In this document: piece by piece, positions 3,301 through 54,935 of the stretch
Layout: each line of letters begins with the position of its first letter
Position numbering within the stretch: position 1 is the first letter of the stretch
Assembly: GCA_026874595.1 (NCBI GenBank)
Contig: CM049308.1
Coordinates: 24,206,367-24,270,366, forward strand
DNA length: 64,000 nucleotides
Direction: 5' to 3'
From: Sipunculus nudus
Lineage: Eukaryota; Annelida; Sipuncula; Golfingiida; Sipunculidae
Made by a program: the position numbers and the translations under genes
Notes under the pieces: generated by a model
What the model was told of the DNA's origin: nothing
Seen by the model: only the letters and a program-made list of their open reading frames with translations
The model's database searches: none

Positions 3301-3875
3301 TGTTGCTTGCCTAGCTCGTCATTAACCTGGACGTCACTTTCAGTTTGGCTGCGCACCGCTGATACTAACGACACGTGGGAGGTTTCGTCTACTCCCTCGA
3401 GGTATAGTTCTCAGGCTAAGGTAAATTCGGTTTAACAATTCGGATTATCCGGTTCACGTACGGATTAGTTCGTACACAAGGTGACCACCGCTAAGACATG
3501 CTGAGGTTCAGCTCTAGTCTGGCAAATTGTACACGACCTTCAGAACTCTGCAACGTCGCCGTACATCCCTTTCCAGTCGAACTCGGCACTTGCACGCTCG
3601 TGTGGCCCATCTTCATAACATCAGTCCGTACCATGGAGTACCACTGGAGTACCACGATCCTTGATCCATCCAGATCGCCGCGATTATACAGACTAAGAAA
3701 TCGTCCATATAACCTGAAAAGTTACATTCACATTTTTATGCCGTAAAAATTGTGTAAGCCGTGGGCCTTCGTATACCTCCCGGCCATCTCCGCCATGCTA
3801 TCTATATCGCGACACTGTCTCTCTTTCTAAAAAAAAAAAACAGAGAGATCTTTGCTGCACCAGTTCAAATACTGT
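3300..3875. other. Unassigned sequence between gypsy fragment and TRIM
   Basis: GC-richer than its surroundings, with an 82-codon open frame on + (3498-3746). On the minus strand it may be further degraded gypsy protease or linker, but no motif was convincing. I assign no gene. Confidence 0.4.
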
Positions 3876-3932
3876 TGTTACGGGGTGACATTAAAGCGGA
3901 CCGAACTGCCTCGTTAGTGAAGCTTGCTTTGC

Positions 3933-3986
3933 TAGTGAAGCGGTTGAAACTCCGGACTTGTGCGCCACCGACATGGGTTCGAATCC
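3933..3986 (+). promoter_or_regulatory. tRNA-like Pol III A and B boxes inside the TRIM LTR
   Basis: Within the 5' LTR, TAGTGAAGCGG (3933-3943) fits the A-box consensus. GGTTCGAATCC (3976-3986) is a perfect B box, with 32 bases between them, as in a tRNA gene. A pairable T-arm surrounds the B box. In the 3' LTR (4149-4304) the corresponding boxes are partly decayed (CAGCGAAGCGG, GGTTCAAAACC). Transcription by Pol III is inferred, not shown. Confidence 0.65.
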
Positions 3987-4033
3987 CGGATCGGCCCAGA
4001 TTTTCCCCTGAGTACTTTGTCTTCGTAACAAAA

Positions 4034-4046
4034 TGGGGGCACGTCC
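4034..4046 (+). other. Primer-binding site (tRNA-Pro-like) of the TRIM
   Basis: TGGGGGCACGTCC follows the 5' LTR after three bases. The second copy reads TGGGGGCTTGTCCG. Both are one base from TGGGGGCTCGTCCG, the start of the classical proline-tRNA primer-binding site. Confidence 0.7.
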
Positions 4047-4137
4047 AATGTGATGGTAAACTTTGTGGCCCAGGAATAAGCTCACCAAAGTGTGACTTCT
4101 GGGATAATTAGTCTTGTTCTGATAGCAGTACGCTCTT

Positions 4138-4148
4138 AAGAGGGGGTG
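4138..4148 (+). other. Polypurine tract of the TRIM
   Basis: AAGAGGGGGTG abuts the TG that opens the 3' LTR. The same tract precedes the 3' LTR in the second copy. Confidence 0.65.
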
Positions 4149-4304
4149 TGTTACGGGATGACATAAAAGCGGACCGAAGTGCCTCGTTAGTGAAGCTTGC
4201 TTTGACAGCGAAGCGGTTGGAACGCCGGACTTGTGCGCCACCGGCATGGGTTCAAAACCCGGATTGGCCCAGTATTTTCCCCTGAGTACTTTGTCTTCGT
4301 AACA

Positions 4305-5565
4305 CTGTTCACGCAACAGCAAGTCAACTAACAGGTTTGATGTCATCGCCTATACCCGCAATCTTGTTCCAATGGTCAAGATAACCACTTAGCCGCAACG
4401 CGAACGGGCTGGGAGTGTCGCAACGCTGTGTCCTACAAGTACGAAACTTGTTACGATAACCCTCCTCAGTCATCTTGTAACGCTCTTAAGAGATAACATT
4501 AGCTAATCATAGTCCATGGCTTCTCTAACTGCAAACTGCGCGTAAGTATCAAACGCCTTACCACAATCTACATATGTAGAATTACCTTGGAGGAGCGCAT
4601 CTCCTTTTAAAAATAAACATAATTGTTTTCACTCTGCATGAGCAGAGTTTAGCTATTAGTTATATAATAATATAGAAGTATACAGTATTTAAGTAATAAC
4701 TCGGCCCTACCATTCCGGGTCATCATGATAATCTAATTAATCAAATTGGTGGCCACCAAAAATTTGAAGTATGAAGATGTTATTTATACAGATATATATA
4801 AAATCCCGCTCGACGACCACATAACTATTATAGACATCGGGCTCTTAAGGTTTAAGCTTAAATTACAATGATATCGATGATATCCCATACACGGATATAA
4901 TAATAAGTAAGCAAACTGCCATTTAGATTTGCGCCCCGACTCATTAACGTGTCTAGTATCCAGTAGGGGGCGCCAGCGTTGTTAAAGAGTCTATTGATTC
5001 AAAGAACTTCGCGCCTCTGTAACATTTATAACACTGGTGCAAGGTTTAAAATATTTCTTAATATGTGAGAAACTATGTCAATATGAACACACTTTTACAT
5101 AACTGCGAGTCATGCATTTCATTTACCTTTTACAAAATGTGCACATTTTTTTTTAAAAAAGTGCTGAAGGAAAGTCGAGTTAAATTATGGCATACATTAT
5201 TGTCAAGTGAAATGATGTGTGCGGAGTCCAATTCTGCCGTATGCCTAGCTCGCAGGTGAACACAAGTGCCTCAAGGTGCTGGTTTTCATTGGAACCTGGG
5301 TAAAATTCAGCAAAAACATATGACGTTGAAATAAATTGCCATAACTATATAGCGTTGTAGTAAACTCAAAAATGCAGCAAATTCAAATATTGTTCCTACA
5401 TTATTATGACATTGCATAACTTGCATATTATGCTGTATGCAAATATATAAAACTTTTATGGTGAATTTATACTCTAAAAAATATCTTTAAATCCATCCTC
5501 CGTTTAATATATATAACTTTCTTTAGGGTTCCGATTTTGGGGGAAAAGACCTTGTCTATTACATG
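4305..5565. other. No gene seen
   Basis: AT-rich DNA. Short open frames (for example 5065-5259 +) have no recognisable domain, splice context or repeat partner. Confidence 0.5.
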
Positions 5566-35240: not shown

Positions 35241-37130
35241 ATGGCATATTGCACAGAGTGATTCTCACGTGGAAACTGGCAAAAACCAGCATCGGGCAAA
35301 ACATGCAAAACATGTTGCAAAATAGGACACTTTGCCAAAACATGTCACACAGCCAAGCTCAGAGAGGATAAACCTCAGAAACAAGACACTGTGCAAACCA
35401 CAGGGGATGAGGATGTAGAAGTTCTTCTCAAAATTACCCCGAATTGCACAAACTGCAAATCAATGATGGCCGACATGATTCTTGATAGCACAAGGGTCAA
35501 GTTTCAAACTGATAGTGGAGCCAGCTTCAATGTAGTACCAAGACAGCTGGTACCAAACATTGAACTCGAACCGTATACAACTAAGGTTGTTGTTTGGAAT
35601 AAGGAAGTAGAAAAACCCCTTTGGCAAATGTAGGACAACGATACAGAACTGTGGAAATGACAAGAAATATTCCGTGGAAAATTTAGTGATAGAGGAATAA
35701 AACCACTCTACTGTGCAAGCGGCACAGTGAAGCCATGAACTTGATAACAATACAATGAAAACATTGCTGGGGTTTACGAACATAAAGCTTTCAGCGAAAG
35801 ACTAGGAACTGCCTGAAGTGGTATATCTAACCATCGAAGCTGCAGCCGAACCTCATGGTGTAGCCTCCTGCAGAATACCATTCAGCCTCAAGGCCAAGGT
35901 CACGGCAAAGGTAGACGAACTGGCAGATTTAATGGTTATCGCTAAAGTTGATGAACCAACAGAATGGATCAGTCGCATATTTGCTAGCACCAAAGAAAAA
36001 TGGAGACTATATGTCCCCCCATAGACCCCCAAGTCCGCAACCTTTGGAGCGAGATCAATGAATTGCCATTTTGGGTGTCGTTTTGCGAGATTTGACAAAA
36101 GCAAAGGTGTTCTCCAAATTTGACCTCATAAATGGCTATTTGCATTGCCAACTTGATGAGCCATCCAGTTACTTGCCCTGCTTCATTGTTCCGTTCGGGA
36201 GATACCGCTGGTTGAGACTGCCCTTTGGGCTAGCGATATCAAGCGAAATTTTCCAGAAGAAACTACTTTCTGCTCTTGAAGGTCTTAAAGGAGTACCTTG
36301 CATCGCAGATGACAAACTAGTGTGTGGCATTGGAGATACAGAGGCAGAGGTCAACATAGACAAGAAAGTTGAGCAGCTACTCATCCATTGTGATCAATAC
36401 ACGATCAGGCTGTACCCTGACAAAACCGAGATGAGACACACGAGCATACCTTTCCAAGGCCACATCATTACAGATGAAGAAATCCGGCCAGAGCCTGATA
36501 AGATATATGCAATCACATACATATAAGAGACTCTAAAAGTGACTGACGTTCAGCGACTGGCAGGTATGGTGAATTACCTAGCCAGGTTTTTGCCAAAATT
36601 GTCTCAAGTCATGGAACCCATACGACGTTTGATGTCAAGTGACATTGGGTTCCAAAACAGAAGGATGCATTCTCCAAAGAGAAAGAGTTGGTCATTGGTG
36701 CACCCGTTTTGAGATACTACAGGCATGACCTAGATAATCATTCAGTGCGATGCCATCCCAAAGTGGCTTAGGAACAACGCTTCTGCAGAATGGCCAACCT
36801 TTTTCCTACACAAGCCGAGCTCTCATCTTCGCAGAGACTCGATATGCCCAACTGGAAAAGGAGATGTTGGCCGTGGTGTTAGCGCTGAACAAATTTTACC
36901 AATATACGTTTGACGAGTATACCACTGTGCTTAGTGACCATAAGCCACAACAGTCGATTATCTGAACTGAACTCCCCTTGCGTAATATTTAACCAGTCAC
37001 ATTGCAGGCACTATCTGATGTTGTTCGAGTTGCCGGGCGATTTGCATTGCGGTAGACTTTTTCTACCGCCCGTTGTAATACTAGCCGTGACAAACACGAC
37101 TCAGTTAGAGTCCTCCTTCTGAGTCGCGAC
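35241..37130 (+). pseudogene. Decayed Ty3/gypsy gag-pol
   Basis: In order along the strand: a CCHC zinc knuckle (C-X2-C-X4-H-X4-C, about 35308-35350) from the end of gag; an aspartic protease core with DSG (about 35510); RT motifs FSKFDL, PFGRYRWLRLPFG and IADD (36110-36320); then RNase H ending in SDHKP (36740-36965). Most of gag is missing, since only about 300 bp separate the LTR from the zinc knuckle. Stops and frameshifts occur between protease and RT (about 35632, 36024), between RT and RNase H (36526), and by one inserted base at about 36753. The lineage resembles the K02A2.6-like gypsy elements, which also carry ADD. It cannot be active. Confidence 0.85.
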
Positions 37131-45786: not shown

Positions 45787-45822
<36 letters not shown>

Positions 45823-48800
45823 ACGAAGACTAATTGCTCAGGGGAAAAGCTTGGGTCGATCCCGGTTTCGAACCCAGGTCGGTGGCATACAAGTCCGGCG
45901 TCCCAACCGCTTCGCTAGAAAAGCCAGCTTTTATGTTTACCCCGTAAGGCCAAAAAAATAAAAAGGTATGGTTCTCAGGCACTTTTTTCAGAAATCAATG
46001 CGGTCGGGCGGTATTTTATTTTTGACCTTTTTTTTGTATGTTTCGGTAAAATGTCATATGATCAGGGAAAAGCATGTAAATGAAAGGTTTCTTCTTGCTA
46101 CGCAGGAAAAAAGGTATGGTTATCAGGAAATCGTATCGAATCGTATCGAAATTGTATTATTTTACCATCTTGAATGATGAAATCAAAATAAAAATGTTTG
46201 ATGGGAGGTTGAAATTGACGCGGGCGGTGCCTGAAAACCATACCTTTTATTTTTCTTTGCCTAACACACCCCCTCTTAAGAGCGTTCTGCTAGAACAAGA
46301 CTAATTTTCCCCCAGGAGTCAAACTTTTGTGAGCTTATTCCCTGGGCCACAAAGTTTTATCGTCACGTCGGACAAGCCCCCAATTTGTTACGAAGACAAA
46401 TTGTTGAGTGGAAAAATCCTGGGCCAATCCGGGAGTCGAACCCAGGTCGGTGGCGCACAAGTCCGGCGAACCAACCGCTTCGCTAGCAAAGCAAGCTTCA
46501 CCAGCGAGACTGTTCGGTCTCCCCTTAACAATATATATATATATATATATATATAAGTGGTTGGTTACCGTTCCAGGATCAACTGACCTATCACGTTACT
46601 TGTGAATACAAGATTGATATTATAAAATAAAGAAGAAATTTTATATTATCTGCCGAATATGAACAAGAACCTTAACTATTACAATTAATCCTCGTCAAAT
46701 CGGTAAGTGAATATAAAATAACTGGTAAAATGATGGATATATTATATGTTATATGGAAGGATCCCGAAAATGGAACCTCGCGAAACGCTGAAAAACTGAT
46801 AATGGCGATCATTTAATCTCGTAAATATGAAGCCAACCTGTATCCTGCCACTGTCATTCTCCTCCTGGTTCATTTTTACAGGTTGCATATAAAAATCTGG
46901 ATGCCAATTAAGGTGCAATTTAAGTCAATAAACAATTTAACTTAGTTCACTTCACAAGAAAAAAAAATGACAAAGATTGAGCCATAGATTTTAAATCCAC
47001 TGGTAAGGATTCTTGATTCCCAAATACGCATGTCAATTTCAGTTCATGAATGTTAACTCACTTGTTGAGTTACATAAGGTTTCTCAGTGATTTAGACACT
47101 GAATCAATGCACAAAGGGAAAATGAATGCTTTATCACTGAGAGTAATTTTAAGGCAATGTGCTTGAGACCCGTGACACTTTCCCTCATTTAGAAAATACC
47201 CCCCCCCCCCCCCCCCCAGCAAAAAACTGTGATAAGTAACACTTCAAGGGTGAAACAAGGGGCCACCACAGACAACCATGACAAACAGTGACATCCATTT
47301 CATTGATATTTGAACAGATGTAAATATATGTGGCCTACAATTAATATACTTTACAAAGTTACCACACTTTGCTTATACGATATGGGTACCTCATATCAGG
47401 GATCTGTTCATTTATAAAAAAAATCCGCTTCTTGTGTATTTCCCGTAGTTCCAGATAAGTGGCGCTGCAACAGCCCCTCCACGAGAAAAATCATATTTCA
47501 AAGGATTTTCGGGAAATATTGTAAATTACCCTTCATCAGGACTGACATTGCACTGTTCCCGACAGTTCAAGACTAATAAACGGATATACAGAGGAGTAGT
47601 GAGACAAAGGTCACGTGGTACCACCGTCAATTAATATACAGTATTGATGTGACACTACACCTTGCTGGATGGATGCCCGGATACCGCCTCCGTTCCACAC
47701 AGCCACAGAGGCGTTGGTCCAGCCCGTGGCCACTTGACCCGTCAGACTGCTGTGGATCATGGCGTCCGTGATTATGTTACCTGATATGAAAAAAAACTTT
47801 TATGTAGGTTATGTTATGAAATCAACCAGTGGTTTTACACAAATAACAAAGGTAGCGAAAATTGAATAAGAATTTAATAGACCATTACATACATCGACCA
47901 TATATAAAACAAATTGTTTCCGTATCGTTTTCGTTGTCAATATCCGATTAAAGTATATTCAGAGGCGTCAATGTAGGGGATATATATCCCCCCACCTCAC
48001 TTTTTGGCAAGGTAGAACATTTATATATTGCAAATGAAATTTATTAATAAATATAATTATAGACTTTACTTCCATTTGTGAGTTTAATATGAAATACTAT
48101 ATCTTAACCTGGTTTAGAATGAGCTTAACTGGACATGATACCTTATTTAAAAAAAAAAAACCTTATACTTAATTGTAATATATTTGAAATGTGATTAAGT
48201 ACTTATATTTGAAATAATTTGTCACACATACGCTAAAATGCGTTTCCTGGGTGCCCATACTCCTTTTAGTTTACAAGCGATTCCGGGGGTATCCCTGTGC
48301 GATCGTACACCTATTTTTGCATGACATAACAAAGAGCTGCGAACACGGAGCGCGGAAGCTTCCCTGTGACCTATGTGTTTGTTGTATTAAAGTGTGTATC
48401 CTCACTTTTCTATATGCGTTTCAGGGCGTTATATGGCGTTTTGTTGCGGTTTTTAGGCGTTCACCTGCATGAAATATTGGGAATTTTTCTAAAGTATGTT
48501 AACACATCGCCTCCCTGTCCACGTTGTCACGCGTTGTGTGCGCATCCATGCGTTGTGCGTTCGATCAGGCTTTTTTGAGATGATTATACAGAGCGAGTAA
48601 AATGTGAGGAAACGTTAGGAAAAAGCTGCAGTGCGAGGAACCCACAAAGGAAAACGCATATGTAAGCAATTCATGATCTTGTACGATCAGCCATGAGCAG
48701 AAAAAAGGGGTCTCCATCGCAATGTTGATACTGTCATCGCGGTGGTCGGGAAGATGGGATGTGAAGAGGGACTGTAAATCCAAAAATAATTGATCTCCCA

Positions 48801-49984
48801 AGTTTTCCCAAATAAAAACTTTGTATTCCGATTTTCACAAGAATTTTGCCTATTTTGAGATCAAGCCGCTTCGACATATTTTTTTCAAGGAAACAAATTT
48901 GTTATAATTAAATTCTGATATAATTTTTTTTTTATTTTGCGCTTTTGCCTGTTCAGCAATAACATTATTTCATGTTATCATTAAGCATATGAAATTCTAT
49001 CGAACATTTATAAAATAAAACGATAAAAAATAGTCGATAAAAGTGACTGAGAAACCAACCTTATTTCGGCCTAAGCTATGATAAACTAAAGTTACCTACC
49101 CAAGTTACACTCCTGGTATCTGCACGTGTCTCTCTCGCCATTCAGAAAAACTCGGGTCTCTCCTACTTCCTGTTGGCCGAACTGATCGACTTTTTTCTTC
49201 CATTCGTTCACTTCCGCTAACACAGCGGGATCTGTAAATACAGAGCGAGTGAGCGAGTGACGTAATTGAATCCACACCATCCGAGTACGAGTGCAAATTC
49301 TAATATTCCCCCCCCCCCCCCCTCCCCCCCCCACCCCCCCCCCCACGAGTCATTTGGAACCTGAGTCAAAGTCCGAGTTCAATACAAATCTCCTTATTTA
49401 AGAATTAAAATGGAATTATGAGATTATCGTGTGTGACTTTCGCGTTAGTTATACTTTACCTTTACTTTATTATTTAATTACATTTGGCTCTCTTGTGGCA
49501 GTGAGAGGCCTGAGTTACAGCTGAGCGGTAAAACGCTCGGTCTGCTCCGCTGGCGACCCGGGTTTGGTCCCAGGTGCTGCCATGAGAGTGGGTTGTTGTG
49601 GCCCATCCAAGGTCGGTGGTTCTCTCGGGGTTCTCCGGCTTCCTCCACCTCTCTCACTACGATCTTAAACTCTATCATTATCTTCTATTTTCGCCTTAAA
49701 TATCTAACTGTATACCGACTCGATCTGTCAAACTTTGTCTTTGCTGAGAGAGTCAGTTCGGGCCGTCAGATCATTTTCATTCGGTCAATCTCCTGATGCA
49801 GAGCTAATACTTGGTTTTCCGTATGTATAGTTCTTTAAGGTATATATTGCAGAAACTCGTTACGGAACTCGAGATGGATTAGGTCTGATTTCTAGAGACC
49901 ATAGATGAGAGGACGTGTAAATTCGAGTTCAGAGAACGAATCAGAGTCCTTCAAAAGTGGAATCGACTCCAGATATACAATGCA

Positions 49985-50045
<61 letters not shown>

Positions 50046-53000
50046 AAATGCCAGATAATTAAGAGAGAGTAAAATGGGGGTTTGTAGGGTCCCGACAACA
50101 CATTCTGCTGCTGTTGCTGTATACCTTCTGCAAATGAAGAATTCAGCAGGATAGGGTTTCCTCCTGTTGTTTTCAGTTCCCCGTTATCGTCAAAAACCAG
50201 GTTAAGCTCCCCCAGGTATTTGCCGTACGCGAAGGCTTGTACCACTGGCACCCTTCTCCCGCTGGTCTGCGTCACAATCAGCGGATACTCGCCTTCAGGT
50301 CGCTCCGATGATGGTGGTGTACCTGGGGTAGAAAAAAAGTCAACAAATATACATAAATTTATGTATTCAGTGCAATTCACATATACACGAGTATGCGCAC
50401 TGTACGTGCTTGGCAGTTAGTGTCTGCATGTATTCGCTCAAATGATCAACGGCAGTGGGTGATCAAGTAGGACACGGGACCACAGACAACATAGATAATA
50501 AGTGATCTTGATCCGTCGATGTCCGATCCAGTGTCAGTTTTCGATGATAGATGTCGCTCATTTGGTGGGACTAGTCTGTTCTGTCGACAAAGGTTTATTT
50601 ATCATATTTCATAACAAGTCTGTCCTCATTATGTGATTTTCCTGAAATCATTTTGTTTAGTTATTAAAAAGATACCTTAAAAATGTTGGCACTTTAATTG
50701 GTAGTTAAGGTGTTTTGGCACGGACTTAAAATAGTTTTGACGAGCACAGCAACGCCGTGTATCAGAGTAAAGCGCTACCTTTCGTCAGTATAAGAGGTTA
50801 ATGAAGATGGATGGTACTGAACATGGTTGAATGATGGATACAGATGGGTCATCAGCATTCCAGGAACGGATCCAAAGCCTCCTTATTTAAGGGTTTCAAA
50901 CCAGTTTTTGCGACCTGGACCCCCCTTTTTCTGGACCCAGCTACCTTTCATTAGGTCATTTCATTAGAACTCCTGAGTTGGACCCCCCTTTCCTAAATCC
51001 TGGACCCGCCCCTGCATTCTTTTCGTAAACGAATGCTCTTGATAATTTGGATAGATAACAGCAAGAAAGGTACTAAAGGTACCTGGAACGTATTCGTGAA
51101 TACATGGCGATAAATAAAGCAAATGTCTTACCTGTGTACAGGAAAGTGTTCGTATGGCCGCCAACCACAACATCAATATCAGGGACATTTGCTGCCACCT
51201 GTCGGTCAACTTGAAAACCAGAATGCCCTAACGCAATTAGAATATTGATCCCCTGAGCTTTGAGTCGGCTGGCTTCTTCTCTGACGGCCTGTATTTCTTC
51301 GGAGAAAACCACGTTGTCTCCTGGTAATAAAGATCAACTATACTAATATCGCCTTGAATAACTTATACCTAAAAATCACAACAGCATATTTTTTTAACGG
51401 GAAAAAATGCAGCATCACAAAAAAAAAACAAAGTCAACAAACAATGTATACATACAGTGTCAATTGCATTTGTGTCAAATGACTTTAAAGCTGCCCATTC
51501 ACTTACCTTTTGAAAAGGAATTTATGTTATTTCTGGCTTCCTCTTTGTATATTTAAATGATCTTAATGTCATTCTGTTTGTGAAAAGTTCATATGAAGTC
51601 TCCGTGAAGGATGTATGAACTTGTTTATTAACAAGGTGTTTGTTAACACAGCAATGTTGACAAATGGGGAAAAACATGTAACCTAAGGTTATAGGCTGTT
51701 GCAAAACACCATTTGCAAACCCTTTTGCATATCTGATTTGCCGCCAGATTCCCTCGTTGAATTTGTTTAAATTATTCTGGCGGGCCGCCATATATAATAA
51801 ACATGTTGATATAAACAAAACAAGCAGCCTGTGAACGTAGCGGCATATCGACCGTCTGACATTACGAACAGATTACTGGCTTGCAAGAGTGTCTTTACAT
51901 CTAGGTCTGAGGAACGCATTATAAGGCCCCATGAGGATGCAATTATTTTCGTCATTTTTGACAACGCCTCATGGCCTACAGGTACATTGTCAATTAACAT
52001 AAACCAAATCAATCGTTAGCATTGTTTGTATACTTTCTAATGACATCAAACATGAGCGAGAAATGGATCGATTTAACTCAGCATATTTGTAAATCCCTCG
52101 GCATGTTGTTGAATTTATGACCGCAAGAACACAATCATGGCTCACACGGGTTACAGGACGCAGGCAACTTGCAGGCGATACAGGAAATGACTCCTTACCA
52201 TAGAGACGGGGTTTCAGTTTGGGTTGTGAGTTCACTTGTATTCTTTTGTGTTAAATAATCATCCGTAGCATAATGTTAGGATTATGAATGCACCATGATG
52301 AAAACCACTGCGATACATTCCTGTATATTTCTTGTATCACGAATAAAGAAGGCTTACCAACCAAATTATCATTGCCTACTGGGTCGGGTTGTCACGGCTA
52401 CATGTGAACGGCGATATCCATGTTTTCTTGCCTATTTTTATAAGAACTCAAAGGGATTACCTTTAGTTTATAAAGGTCAGATAGGTGATTAGGCCCCTTA
52501 AACAAAATACCTAAAACGATTTTCTGTTTTACACTAATTTTTTAAACAATTTACTTATATCCCCTCTCTTTGGGGCATTCTCAGATTTAATTCCATGTGA
52601 CCAAGATTTTCTTCTTAACGTAAGCCCCGGATATATCACATTCAGTGTACGTCTGTGACCGCGTCCAATTCATATAATATGATATCCCAGTGACCTAGAC
52701 TCAAACATTATTAATCATAAATGTGTTATAATGCATGTCACAGATAAGGTAAACATTATGTTAAGCTGGATAAGAATTACTGGGTAACGGAAGTATGGAG
52801 TTACATGGACAGATACATGTAGAGCAAGGTGTCAATCATAATCAGTACTTCCCTCGTTTATCTCACTTTCTAAAAGGGATCCTTTTTTTAAATCCTATTT
52901 CATTGTTGTGAATGCTCGGTCTCACATGACGACACTGTGCAATCATTCAGCGCTGATAACACTCACTGTAGGCTCTGACAGAGACTATGCATTATAAAAT

Positions 53001-54230
53001 TCCTCACTGTAAAGATATTGTACACCGTTTAGCTTTATTAACTGCTTTATTAATTTTTGCTAGCTTAAATGTTTAAATCAGTATCGCACACATACATATA
53101 AATTACAACATATACAGGCAGCAGTTGCAACTGTAAAATTAAAAAAAAAAAAAAAAAAAACGAAAATTATAGTAATATGTATGCATGTTAAGATTGTTCA
53201 TGCATGTGACAGCCTTAAGTTAACAATTGACCTATCCATGAACTCTATGCGACCTTAATCGCATATTTATTTAATGTATAAACATTAAGAATGGGACTAA
53301 GGAGCAACCAATCAGGTGACCTTATCATTGTAAAGCGTCAATCATCTGACAAAAACAAATTTTGCATAATTTGACAGTGCTCTGTCAAACAGAACACGTG
53401 TAGTCTGTAAATGCAACCAGTATCCATGTCGTCATGTTTTCCGGGATATTTTATTATACGAAGCAGACAGTATAAAAAGTTTCTAGGCTTTAGGTTGTGG
53501 GAGCCATTCCTCCGACTACCGAGTGAATAATAATGTCTTACCTGGCACATAATTCGTATGGGACAAATAATCCAATATATTGCAACACAGTTCACATATG
53601 ACTGCGATATAGTGAACAATGGTCAGGTTATACAAGTTTATGACGTCAGTCAATACGACGTCATGCGCCATCGCCCTTTGTGACGTCATTATTGTGTTAT
53701 AATCAGCTCTCGCTACCATGGCCATGGACGTCCATATGTGTAGGAGCGTTTCGGGGGCTCATTATAATAATAAGTTAAAAGGGCGGAGCATTTTGGCTGT
53801 GGTGGATAGGTCAATTGTGTCATCGGAATCGCCACCAAAATTGACTAAGGTTTACTATTATTCATGATCAATTATACAATAGTGTATGTTTAGAAAAATG
53901 CGAGTAATCTTATCAGATAAGAAACACAAACGCAGGTGAAACCATAAGGCCCACCTCCTCGGCATAGGCAATTTGCAGGGCTTTTATAATAAATATAACA
54001 TATATAAGCAACCTACCTGGACTGGAGACGAAGTGGGTGTCTTTCAAAGTATAACCGATGATTCCTATTTTTGTCCCACTCTTTGTGACGACGACAGATT
54101 TGTTGAAATACCCAGCAATATGCGGTTCCCGGGACCCGTCCGTGTTGGCGCTGACAACAGGAAACGTGATGTTCCTCAGAAAGCGGCCCAGAGCAGCAGG
54201 ACCGAGGTCAAACTCGTGGTTACCTATTGT
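42774..54230 (-). CDS. Ecto-5'-nucleotidase (CD73 family), eight C-terminal coding exons
   Basis: Eight exons with GT-AG borders join into 464 codons in one frame. The family enzyme hydrolyses extracellular AMP to adenosine as a GPI-anchored dimer. Visible are GNHEFD (residues 3-8, catalytic His and metal ligand), GHS (103-105), GGHTNT (125-130), YGKYLG, NGGGIR (274-279), LPF (296-298) and NFLSNGGDGY (382-391), which bind metal or stack and hold the nucleotide. Cysteine pairs TCRYQEC and CASC match the family's disulfides. The tail has small residues (CNTGGAAA) and then a hydrophobic end (ALALTLAFLL), a GPI signal. About 110 N-terminal residues (signal peptide, first Asp/His metal motif, second metal Asp) are not in the window: the intron 5' of 54230 is at least 9.7 kb. 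All seven visible introns are phase 1. No stop or frameshift was seen. Confidence 0.93.
43016..43272. mobile_element. TA-flanked MITE with CCTCCGCCAA termini
   Basis: CCTCCGCCAA at 43016 and TTGGCGGAGG ending at 43272 are perfect inverted ends, each flanked by TA. That fits a Tc1/mariner-type target. Near the right end is an 'acagacaaacagaca' run. It lies in the last intron of the nucleotidase gene. No coding frame. Confidence 0.7.
43664..43867 (-). CDS. 5'-nucleotidase exon (NGGDG nucleotide-binding region)
   Basis: Borders TTTCAG|GTTTAAG (43867) and ATATAG|GTAAAG (43664); 204 bp, phase 1 at both ends. Contains CASC and NFLSNGGDGY. An alternative donor GAGAG|GTTTAT lies nine bases earlier, but it would break the phase. 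Confidence 0.9.
44954..45382. mobile_element. 429-bp element with perfect 31-bp inverted termini
   Basis: The 31 bases 44954-44984 (beginning agcaaaagtggggatat) are repeated without a mismatch in inverted orientation at 45352-45382. The interior has palindromic 'gcgtatgca' and 'tgcatacg' words, and parts resemble 58624-58695 and 63420-63545. No clear target duplication. It lies in a nucleotidase intron. Confidence 0.65.
45491..45646 (-). CDS. 5'-nucleotidase exon (LPF motif)
   Basis: Borders CCCACAG|GAAAAG (45646) and TCTCCG|GTATGT (45491); 156 bp. Encodes VIQHDVMTVLPFRNELT, with the Phe that stacks on the base in the family, and FLQVSG at its end. Confidence 0.92.
45790..45818. repeat. (AT)n, left half of a split microsatellite
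   Basis: About 14 AT units ending exactly at the TRIM boundary; the other half is at 46531. Confidence 0.85.
45819..46530 (-). mobile_element. TRIM-like miniature LTR retroelement, copy 2, interrupted by a MITE
   Basis: Reading on the minus strand: 5' LTR 46530-46386 (begins TGTTAAG, ends CGTAACA), primer-binding site TGGGGGCTTGTCCG (about 46383-46370), a short interior shared with copy 1, purine tract AGAGGGGGTG, then the 3' LTR ending CGTAACA at 45819. The 3' LTR is split after its first five bases by the MITE at 45948-46261. Without the insert the element is about 395 bp. (AT)n DNA lies on both sides, so it landed inside a microsatellite. The tRNA-like boxes read TAGCGAAGCGG and GGTTCGACTCC in the 5' LTR. 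Confidence 0.82.
45948..46261. mobile_element. 314-bp MITE with TAA target duplication
   Basis: Ends GGCCAAAAAAATAAAAAGG (45948) and the complement of GGCAAAGAAAAATAAAAGG (to 46261) form inverted repeats of about 34 bp including 'ggtatggtt.tcaggcac'. TAA flanks both sides (45945-45947, 46262-46264). The uninterrupted sequence in TRIM copy 1 has a single TAA there. A PIF/Harbinger-like mechanism is suggested by the 3-bp TWA target. A half copy lies at 2350-2447. Confidence 0.8.
46531..46555. repeat. (AT)n, right half of a split microsatellite
   Basis: About 12 AT units starting at the TRIM boundary. Confidence 0.85.
46560..47655. other. Nucleotidase intron; no other gene seen
   Basis: AT-rich, with a C homopolymer at about 47200-47217. 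Confidence 0.5.
47661..47780 (-). CDS. 5'-nucleotidase exon (NGGGIR motif)
   Basis: Borders ATCAG|GTAACATA (47780) and CAGCAAG|GTGTAG (47661); 120 bp. Encodes NIITDAMIHSS and VAVWNGGGIR, with the Asn and Arg that contact substrate in the family. Confidence 0.92.
47781..49095. other. Nucleotidase intron; no other gene seen
   Basis: AT-rich. Contains 'gaggcgtcaatgtaggggat' (47968), an end of the G-rich dispersed repeat also at 10390 and 55660. Confidence 0.5.
49100..49231 (-). CDS. 5'-nucleotidase exon (linker and disulfide)
   Basis: Borders TTTACAG|ATCCCG (49231) and AACTTGG|GTAGGT (49100); 132 bp. Encodes VNEWKKKVDQF and DTCRYQECNLG, the latter with a conserved cysteine pair. Confidence 0.9.
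49306..49345. repeat. Poly-C tract
   Basis: C homopolymers with single interruptions in a nucleotidase intron. Confidence 0.9.
49497..49800 (+). mobile_element. tRNA-derived SINE with conserved central domain
   Basis: The head 'gctgagcggtaaaacgctcg' and B-box-like GGGTTTGGTCC (about 49560) are followed by 'ctcggggttctccggcttcc', similar in style to the central domain shared by a widespread animal SINE superfamily (MetaSINE-like, from memory). The tail is CT/AT-rich. Confidence 0.65.
49986..50042. repeat. (AT)n microsatellite
   Basis: About 28 AT units in a nucleotidase intron; source of a Tyr-Ile open frame fused to the real exon upstream. Confidence 0.95.
50125..50322 (-). CDS. 5'-nucleotidase exon (domain linker)
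   Basis: Borders CCCCAG|GTACACC (50322) and GCAGAAG|GTATAC (50125); 198 bp. Encodes GEYPLIV, VPVVQAFAYGKYLG and GNPILLNSS, all strong family segments. Confidence 0.92.
50860..51015. mobile_element. hAT-like MITE, GGATCC type
   Basis: CAGGAACGGATCC at about 50871 and GGACCCGCCCCTG ending 51015 are imperfect inverted ends of a common hAT form. A related piece is at 20206. No clean 8-bp duplication was visible. Confidence 0.5.
51132..51320 (-). CDS. 5'-nucleotidase exon (GHS and GGHTNT motifs)
   Basis: Borders TACCAG|GAGACA (51320) and TACACAG|GTAAGA (51132); 189 bp. Encodes IALGHSGF and VVVGGHTNTFLY with metal-binding histidines. Confidence 0.94.
51831..51975 (-). repeat. Codable dispersed repeat, copy 2
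   Basis: Minus-strand partner of 38727-38885 with the frame EALSKMTKI...SSWGLIMR...VMSDGR still open. It lies in the intron between the first two visible nucleotidase exons. Confidence 0.5.
51980..54010. other. Nucleotidase intron; no other gene seen
   Basis: AT-rich with a poly-A at about 53140-53160. Open frames have no motif or partner. Confidence 0.5.
54017..54230 (-). CDS. 5'-nucleotidase exon (GNHEFD motif)
   Basis: Borders TCACCAG|ACAATAGG (54230) and AGTCCAG|GTAGGT (54017); 214 bp, starting in phase 0 and ending in phase 1. Encodes TIGNHEFDLGP, FPVVSAN and GIIGYT. It is the most 5' exon recognised. Confidence 0.94.
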
Positions 54231-54935
54231 CTGGTGAACAAGTAAAACAAAGTTATTTCAGCTTAGCTGTACATGCAGCAAATCATTAAATTAAAAATAA
54301 CATCATGACAATAATTCAAATGTCAACTGAATGTGACAGTCTTACTAAAATGTGAAAAAAAACTATCATTCGTTATCGTAAGGTTATTAAATAAAGTTTC
54401 GTATGCACGACTCGGCATTTTATGTCACATCACTCTGAAGTCATGCCGAAAACTGCACTTCAAAGGCTTAACACGATATCGGCCGACTAAGCCAACGCTT
54501 TTTATTCTCACGACACAAAATTAAACACTATAATGAATAAGCGACCCTTAACTATACTCACTGCCTTCCTAACGCTGAAAAATATACAATTCAAGTGCAG
54601 CGAGATTATAAATGCATTGTTGAATTATTCCCGCACAAGCATGGTATGGGTACCATTAGAAAGAAATAAACACATGTAGAAATTGAGAGATTAAACTTTT
54701 TTTCATCGATATCTATTTTGCCGCAGTTTTCAATTTGACTCGTTCTGTCATTCATACGCGGACGGAAAACCCTAATCGGTAGAGAACAAAGCTGTAAAAC
54801 ATCAATATTGACTAAAATTGCCACTGATGGTCGACAGACTATATGGCAAACCGTCGTAGATGCAATACTATCATTGTGTCCCCAGACAAAGTCGGGGGAT
54901 ACTGTGTTTTCATGACGGTCCCGCCGCCGCCGCAT
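54231..54935. other. First visible (long) nucleotidase intron; no exon seen
   Basis: No sequence resembling the missing N-terminal motifs was found here or further to 64000. Confidence 0.45.

What the first reader, a model, noticed from the sequence alone, without database searches (positions are those of the whole stretch)
3876..4304. A 429-bp LTR retroelement whose LTRs contain a tRNA-like Pol III promoter
Seen: two LTRs of about 155 bp with TG...CA ends, a tRNA-Pro-like primer site, a polypurine tract, CTGT target duplication, and inside the LTR consensus A (TAGTGAAGCGG) and B (GGTTCGAATCC) boxes at tRNA spacing. Known: TRIM elements are tiny non-coding LTR elements, and the plant Cassandra TRIMs carry 5S rRNA promoters in their LTRs. 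Inference: this would be an animal counterpart with a tRNA-type promoter, a hybrid of SINE transcription and LTR retrotransposition. I know of no described animal family of this kind, but cannot search.
Basis: partly seen in the sequence, partly recalled or inferred. Interest (0 to 1): 0.88.

Follow-up and report, generated by a model that had tools for sequence, protein, structure and literature searches.

The report
tRNA-promoter mini LTR retrotransposon (Helenus type)
This is a real, tiny, non-coding retrotransposon whose end repeats carry a tRNA-type promoter motif; elements of this kind were described in 2024 under the name Helenus, so it is most likely a new family of a known kind and not a new kind of element.

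Summary
Window 3876-4304 is a 429-bp LTR element: LTRs of 155 and 156 bp (91.7% identical), a tRNA-Pro-like primer site, a polypurine tract, a 4-bp target duplication CTGT, and A and B boxes at tRNA spacing in the 5' LTR. The host assembly (1.43 Gb) gave 51 matches with only 40 of 3,555 candidates scored. Of 40 distinct loci read, 36 had both ends. An exact 4-bp duplication flanks 25 of 36, and 18 of the 26 not lying in (AT)n, against 1.04 expected by permutation. Of 89 LTRs, 66 keep the A box, 74 a relaxed B box, 55 both. So it is one mobile family, not two SINEs. The claim of novelty fails: Kojima 2024 (PMC10886601) described 'Helenus', TRIMs with tRNA-derived sequence in their LTRs, from six animal phyla, with 4-bp duplications in animals and a tRNA-Pro primer in some bivalve families. 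The features I could test agree, except that tRNA likeness beyond the boxes is weak: Rfam's tRNA model gave no match in the 15 loci and two LTRs searched. Pol III transcription is inferred here, as in the paper.

The parts
3872..3875 (.). target site duplication CTGT, left copy
3876..4030 (+). 5' LTR, 155 bp, TG...CA
3933..3943 (+). box A of a type-2 Pol III promoter (TAGTGAAGCGG); a weaker A-like copy lies at 3915-3923
   Evidence: TRGYNNARNNG at this LTR position in 66 of 89 LTRs; at the upstream A-like copy in 1 of 89
3976..3986 (+). box B (GGTTCGAATCC)
   Evidence: GGTTCGANTCC in 54 of 89 LTRs, relaxed GWTCRANNC in 74 of 89
4001..4004 (+). TTTT, possible weak Pol III terminator (inferred)
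   Evidence: T4 here in 78 of 89 LTRs; about 2.6 runs of four or more T per element are expected by chance, so not significant by itself
4031..4148 (+). internal region, 118 bp, no coding sequence recognised
   Evidence: no Pfam match in the three frames of 80 aa or more that overlap the element
4034..4046 (+). primer binding site, tRNA-Pro type (commonest in the family TGGGGGCTCGTCC)
   Evidence: match to tRNA-Pro from recall
4138..4148 (+). polypurine tract AAGAGGGGGTG
4149..4304 (+). 3' LTR, 156 bp, boxes partly decayed
4305..4308 (.). target site duplication CTGT, right copy
46267..46519 (-). second, broken copy of the family: LTR (positions 24-155) and internal region
45819..45930 (-). 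LTR piece (positions 45-155) 336 bp further on, perhaps the rest of the 3' LTR of the same broken copy; it ends in (AT)n
   Evidence: the link to the copy above is inference

Best explanation
A non-autonomous LTR retrotransposon (TRIM) of the Helenus type. Shown: LTR-internal-LTR anatomy, primer site, polypurine tract, 4-bp target duplications, dispersed copies, tandem LTR-internal arrays, and A/B boxes at tRNA spacing in 55 of 89 LTRs. Inferred: RNA polymerase III starts about 12-18 nt upstream of box A in the 5' LTR (distance recalled from tRNA genes) and reads through into the 3' LTR; the short RNA is packaged and copied by the proteins of an autonomous Ty3/Gypsy-type element with tRNA-Pro as primer, then integrated with a 4-bp duplication. 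The promoter lies inside the transcript, so every new insertion carries it, as in a SINE.
For: Anatomy. 51 matches in the host assembly, a lower bound (40 of 3,555 candidates scored). Duplications: 25 of 36 loci exact; outside (AT)n 18 of 26, permuted mean 1.04, maximum 6 in 10,000 permutations; other lengths 3 bp 0, 5 bp 0, 6 bp 1 of 26. Boxes. Box-defining positions are slightly more conserved than other LTR positions (0.965 against 0.932; 2.75% of random position sets reach this). Primer site and tract kept in 51 internal regions. No Pfam match in three frames. Kojima's description of animal Helenus agrees.
Against: No Rfam tRNA match in the 15 loci given (of 41 held, E up to 1) nor in two single LTRs (E up to 10; best hit mascRNA 15.9 bits, E 0.63, in L008). 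Of 10 local alignments (two LTRs, five tRNAs) only three reach a score seen in 11 or fewer of 2000 shuffles: window LTR with tRNA-Lys (2, over the T arm), L008 LTR with tRNA-Thr (2) and with tRNA-Met (11); the Thr comes from a small contig, C121, that may be bacterial. TTTT runs inside the LTR, after box B (78 of 89) and just before box A (51 of 89, not in the window's LTRs), could stop Pol III early. Whole boxes (11 positions each) are barely more conserved than the rest (0.942 and 0.940 against 0.934). The copies are best hits to the window's element, so conservation and shared boundaries are partly selected for. No autonomous partner and no transcript data.
Confidence: 0.9

Rival explanations
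1. An ordinary Pol II TRIM (deletion derivative of a Gypsy element) whose LTR carries tRNA-like boxes by chance or as a dead relic of a SINE that once landed in an LTR.
For: No Rfam tRNA match in the 15 loci and two LTRs searched; ARAGORN finds none in 41 loci; whole boxes barely more conserved than the rest of the LTR.
Against: Both boxes at tRNA spacing in 55 of 89 LTRs, a pair expected in about 4 of 100,000 random LTR-like sequences; box-defining positions slightly more conserved.
Confidence: 0.08
2. Two separate tRNA-type SINE insertions (or a satellite) that happen to lie 118 bp apart.
For: Tandem arrays of LTR-internal units, period about 275 bp, exist.
Against: The LTR-internal-LTR unit recurs at dispersed loci (40 distinct loci read, all chosen by similarity to the element), with 4-bp duplications at the outer ends; TG...CA ends; primer site and polypurine tract lie at the LTR edges.
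Confidence: 0.01

Closest known systems
Helenus (Kojima 2024, PMC10886601), animal families
   Same: TRIM (311-1263 bp); A and B boxes in the LTRs; primer site and polypurine tract; 4-bp duplications in animals; tRNA-Pro primer in some bivalve families; tandem arrays noted for LTR-11_DR; large copy numbers in some families
   Different: Not compared base by base: Repbase and the paper's supplements were not available. Box A begins TAGCG (commonest here) or TAGTG (window copy) where the paper gives TRGCY for most families. The host could not be named.
Cassandra (plants) and Ajax (nemerteans)
   Same: TRIM with a small-RNA-gene promoter in the LTRs
   Different: 5S rRNA promoter, not tRNA type; Ajax makes 5-bp duplications (PMC10886601)
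biv-TRIM (bivalves, PMC6934838)
   Same: Animal TRIM with solo repeats and tandem arrays
   Different: Repeats 202-218 bp, internal 77-80 bp, tract GGGGAGA in most, no unambiguous primer site
tRNA-derived SINEs (SINE2), from recall
   Same: Type-2 Pol III boxes; dispersed short non-coding copies
   Different: Here LTRs, a tRNA primer site and 4-bp duplications of integrase type

Membership tests
Helenus | Short non-coding element with two LTRs (TRIM) | tested here: met
   429 bp; LTR-internal-LTR unit in 40 distinct loci, a few with pieces missing; no Pfam match in three frames
Helenus | A and B boxes in the LTRs | tested here: met
   both in 55 of 89 LTRs, mostly 44 bases apart. The paper's usual TRGCY in box A is only partly met (TAGCG commonest here); YGG and GGTTC are met
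Helenus | LTR sequence recognisably derived from a tRNA beyond the boxes | tested here: inconclusive
   No Rfam tRNA match; some alignments to tRNAs beat shuffles, others not
Helenus | Primer binding site and polypurine tract at the LTR edges | tested here: met
   primer as tRNA-Pro from recall, among those PMC10886601 lists for bivalves
Helenus | 4-bp target duplications (animal families) | tested here: met
   25 of 36 loci; 18 of 26 outside (AT)n, 1.04 expected
Helenus | Mobilised by Gypsy (shared primer site) | not tested
   No search for a partner was answered or run
Helenus | Sequence match to a named Repbase Helenus family | not testable with these tools
   Repbase not held; supplement look-ups capped at 0
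Helenus | Transcription by RNA polymerase III | not testable with these tools
   No RNA or ChIP data; the paper states it is not validated for Helenus
biv-TRIM | Repeats of 202-218 bp and internal domain of 77-80 bp | tested here: not met
   155-156 bp and 118 bp
Cassandra / Ajax | 5S rRNA sequence in the LTR | tested here: not met
   No Rfam 5S match in the window (gathering), in 15 loci or in two single LTRs

The most novel reading that the evidence does not exclude
A Helenus family in a mollusc lineage outside Pteriomorphia (a lucinid- or thyasirid-like bivalve with a sulfur-oxidising symbiont), from which the 2024 paper lists none, in which two TTTT runs, one just upstream of box A (51 of 89 LTRs) and one shortly after box B (78 of 89), set the R region of a Pol III transcript much as the terminator does in Cassandra.
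Probability: 0.2. Interest if true: 0.4.

Novelty: new member of a known kind. Interest (0 to 1): 0.22.

Why it matters
It supports independently, with duplications counted at 36 loci and boxes in 89 LTRs of one genome, that animal genomes carry LTR elements with SINE-style promoter motifs. That bears on tRNA gene annotation and on how a Pol III transcript could enter the LTR replication cycle. The idea itself is already published.

Tried and rejected
Two separate SINEs: rejected. biv-TRIM: rejected on lengths. A true tRNA gene in the LTR: not supported (ARAGORN does find tRNAs in the seven other loci given to it).

Host identity: not settled. Contigs C1-C17 all appear among matches, and the 14 lengths seen lie between 63.5 and 98.5 Mb; whether there is a C18 of that size I did not see. 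Bacterial contigs carry nine COX1 loci of 577-578 aa with nearly the same score, of which I read two proteins, nearly identical; that they are SUP05-like is recall. An intronless HSP70 has no near relative: among the 120 hits listed (8,000 candidates scored) those of the same length reach about 80% and include bivalves, gastropods, an annelid and many insects. Conchocele bisecta has 17 pseudo-chromosomes and SUP05-like symbionts, and a lucinid has 17 chromosomes (passages of PMC9993606 and PMC11830101), but their assembly sizes (1.9 and 1.58 Gb) differ from this one. A sea cucumber assembly of 1.43 Gb (passages of PMC10764150) differs in exact size and chromosome range. A text search for the assembly size listed 20 of 214 papers, none relevant. 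Searches were seen as listings.

Planned counts of the LTR-primer site junction, the host tRNA-Pro gene and a partner Gypsy were not obtained.

Full report
Observation. LTR identity is 91.7%, so this copy is not young. The boxes of the 5' LTR fit TRGYNNARNNG and GGTTCGANTCC; those of the 3' LTR have decayed. Random 155-mers from a first-order Markov model of the LTR give the A box with a relaxed B box, starts 40-48 bases apart, in 8 of 200,000 tries.

Is it a mobile family? The host assembly (1,426,538,692 bases, 153 contigs) gave 51 matches with 40 of 3,555 first-look candidates scored, so the number is a lower bound and the sample leans towards copies like the window's. I read 41 stretches, 40 of them distinct. 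Each holds the LTR-internal-LTR unit; some are arrays with a period of about 275 bp, and in a few, pieces are missing. In the 36 with both ends, 25 have an exact 4-bp duplication. Ten of the 36 lie in (AT)n, where a match means little; of the other 26, 18 match, against 1.04 expected when right flanks are permuted (maximum 6 in 10,000). Outside (AT)n, arrays do worse (3 of 7) than single elements (15 of 19). LTR identity averages 92.2% within loci (59 pairs, arrays included; range 82.1-99.4%) and 89.0% between loci (3,857 pairs).

Promoter. Of 89 near-complete LTRs, 66 fit the A box, 54 the strict and 74 the relaxed B box; 55 hold both, mostly with starts 44 bases apart. The commonest A box is TAGCGAAGCGG (40 of 89 with the following T). 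Positions that define the boxes are a little more conserved than the rest (0.965 against 0.932; 2.75% of random sets do as well), whole boxes hardly so (0.942 and 0.940 against 0.934). Beyond the boxes the tRNA likeness is slight: no Rfam tRNA match in the window at gathering score, in 15 of the 41 loci at E up to 1 or in two single LTRs at E up to 10. ARAGORN finds 0 genes in 41 of 41 loci, though it does find Lys, Met, Asn, Thr and Leu tRNAs in seven other stretches of the assembly (the Asn, Thr and Leu lie on small contigs C115 and C121 that may be bacterial). Ten alignments of two LTRs to five of those tRNAs were set against 2000 shuffles each; the shuffles reaching the observed score were 2, 235, 130, 37 and 736 for the window LTR and 57, 11, 126, 2 and 451 for L008 (Lys, Met, Asn, Thr, Leu), so the likeness is uneven; the window's Lys match covers the T arm.

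Replication signals. The commonest primer site is TGGGGGCTCGTCC, three bases after the LTR (49 of 51 have the T that this copy lacks), and the tract AAGAGGGGGTG abuts the 3' LTR. That the primer is tRNA-Pro rests on my recall of the tRNA-Pro 3' end and agrees with Kojima's list for bivalves; the host's own tRNA-Pro was not obtained. TTTT runs occur in the LTR after box B (78 of 89) and just before box A (51 of 89, not in the window's LTRs); the internal region has them in 4 of 51. They could be terminators, but about 2.6 such runs per element are expected by chance.

What is known. PMC10886601 (I read parts 1-4 of 6 and the figures and tables section, and passages; not its supplements) defines Helenus as TRIMs with tRNA-derived sequence in the LTRs, in fungi, plants and six animal phyla. 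Animal families make 4-bp duplications and share primer sites with Gypsy; bivalve primers include tRNA-Pro; the molluscan families listed are all from Pteriomorphia; tandem arrays are noted for LTR-11_DR. A 2026 meeting report mentions the finding (passages of PMC12859917). A search for 'TRIMp3' or 'Helenus and Ajax' held five papers, of which only these two are relevant; a wider search lists 20 of 75 papers, with the word Helenus only in PMC10886601. Of PMC6934838 (biv-TRIM) I read parts 1-2 of 5. The element meets the structural features that I could test; tRNA origin beyond the boxes is inconclusive, and the Repbase comparison, the Gypsy partner and Pol III transcription are untested.

Verdict. 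Real, correctly read, and of a published kind. What is left is a family in a host that I could not name.

Noticed in passing
G000 contigs C60, C61, C62, C66, C72, C74, C75, C89 (two loci): The host assembly includes bacterial contigs (GC 0.37-0.38 in the stretches read) with nine COX1 loci of nearly the same score, as if several strains of one symbiont were assembled; C123 (GC 0.515 in 10 kb) looks like a further bacterium.
   Followed up: partly
G000:C9:40605435-40699894: A tandem array of tRNA genes about 1.67 kb apart; in the three stretches checked they are tRNA-Lys(TTT) with tRNA-Met between.
   Followed up: no
L001-L041; window 45815-46560: Copies of the element often sit in (AT)n (10 of 36 loci with both ends), and ATAT makes up 9 of the 25 exact duplications.
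   Followed up: partly
window 36062-36526: Reverse transcriptase fragment (Pfam RVT_1, E 5.7e-12) of a broken retroelement; a frame at 35262-35633 looks like a zinc knuckle by eye, without a Pfam match.
   Followed up: no
window 49892-54257, minus strand: Three frames look by eye like exons of a 5'-nucleotidase; Pfam gave no match to them singly.
   Followed up: no
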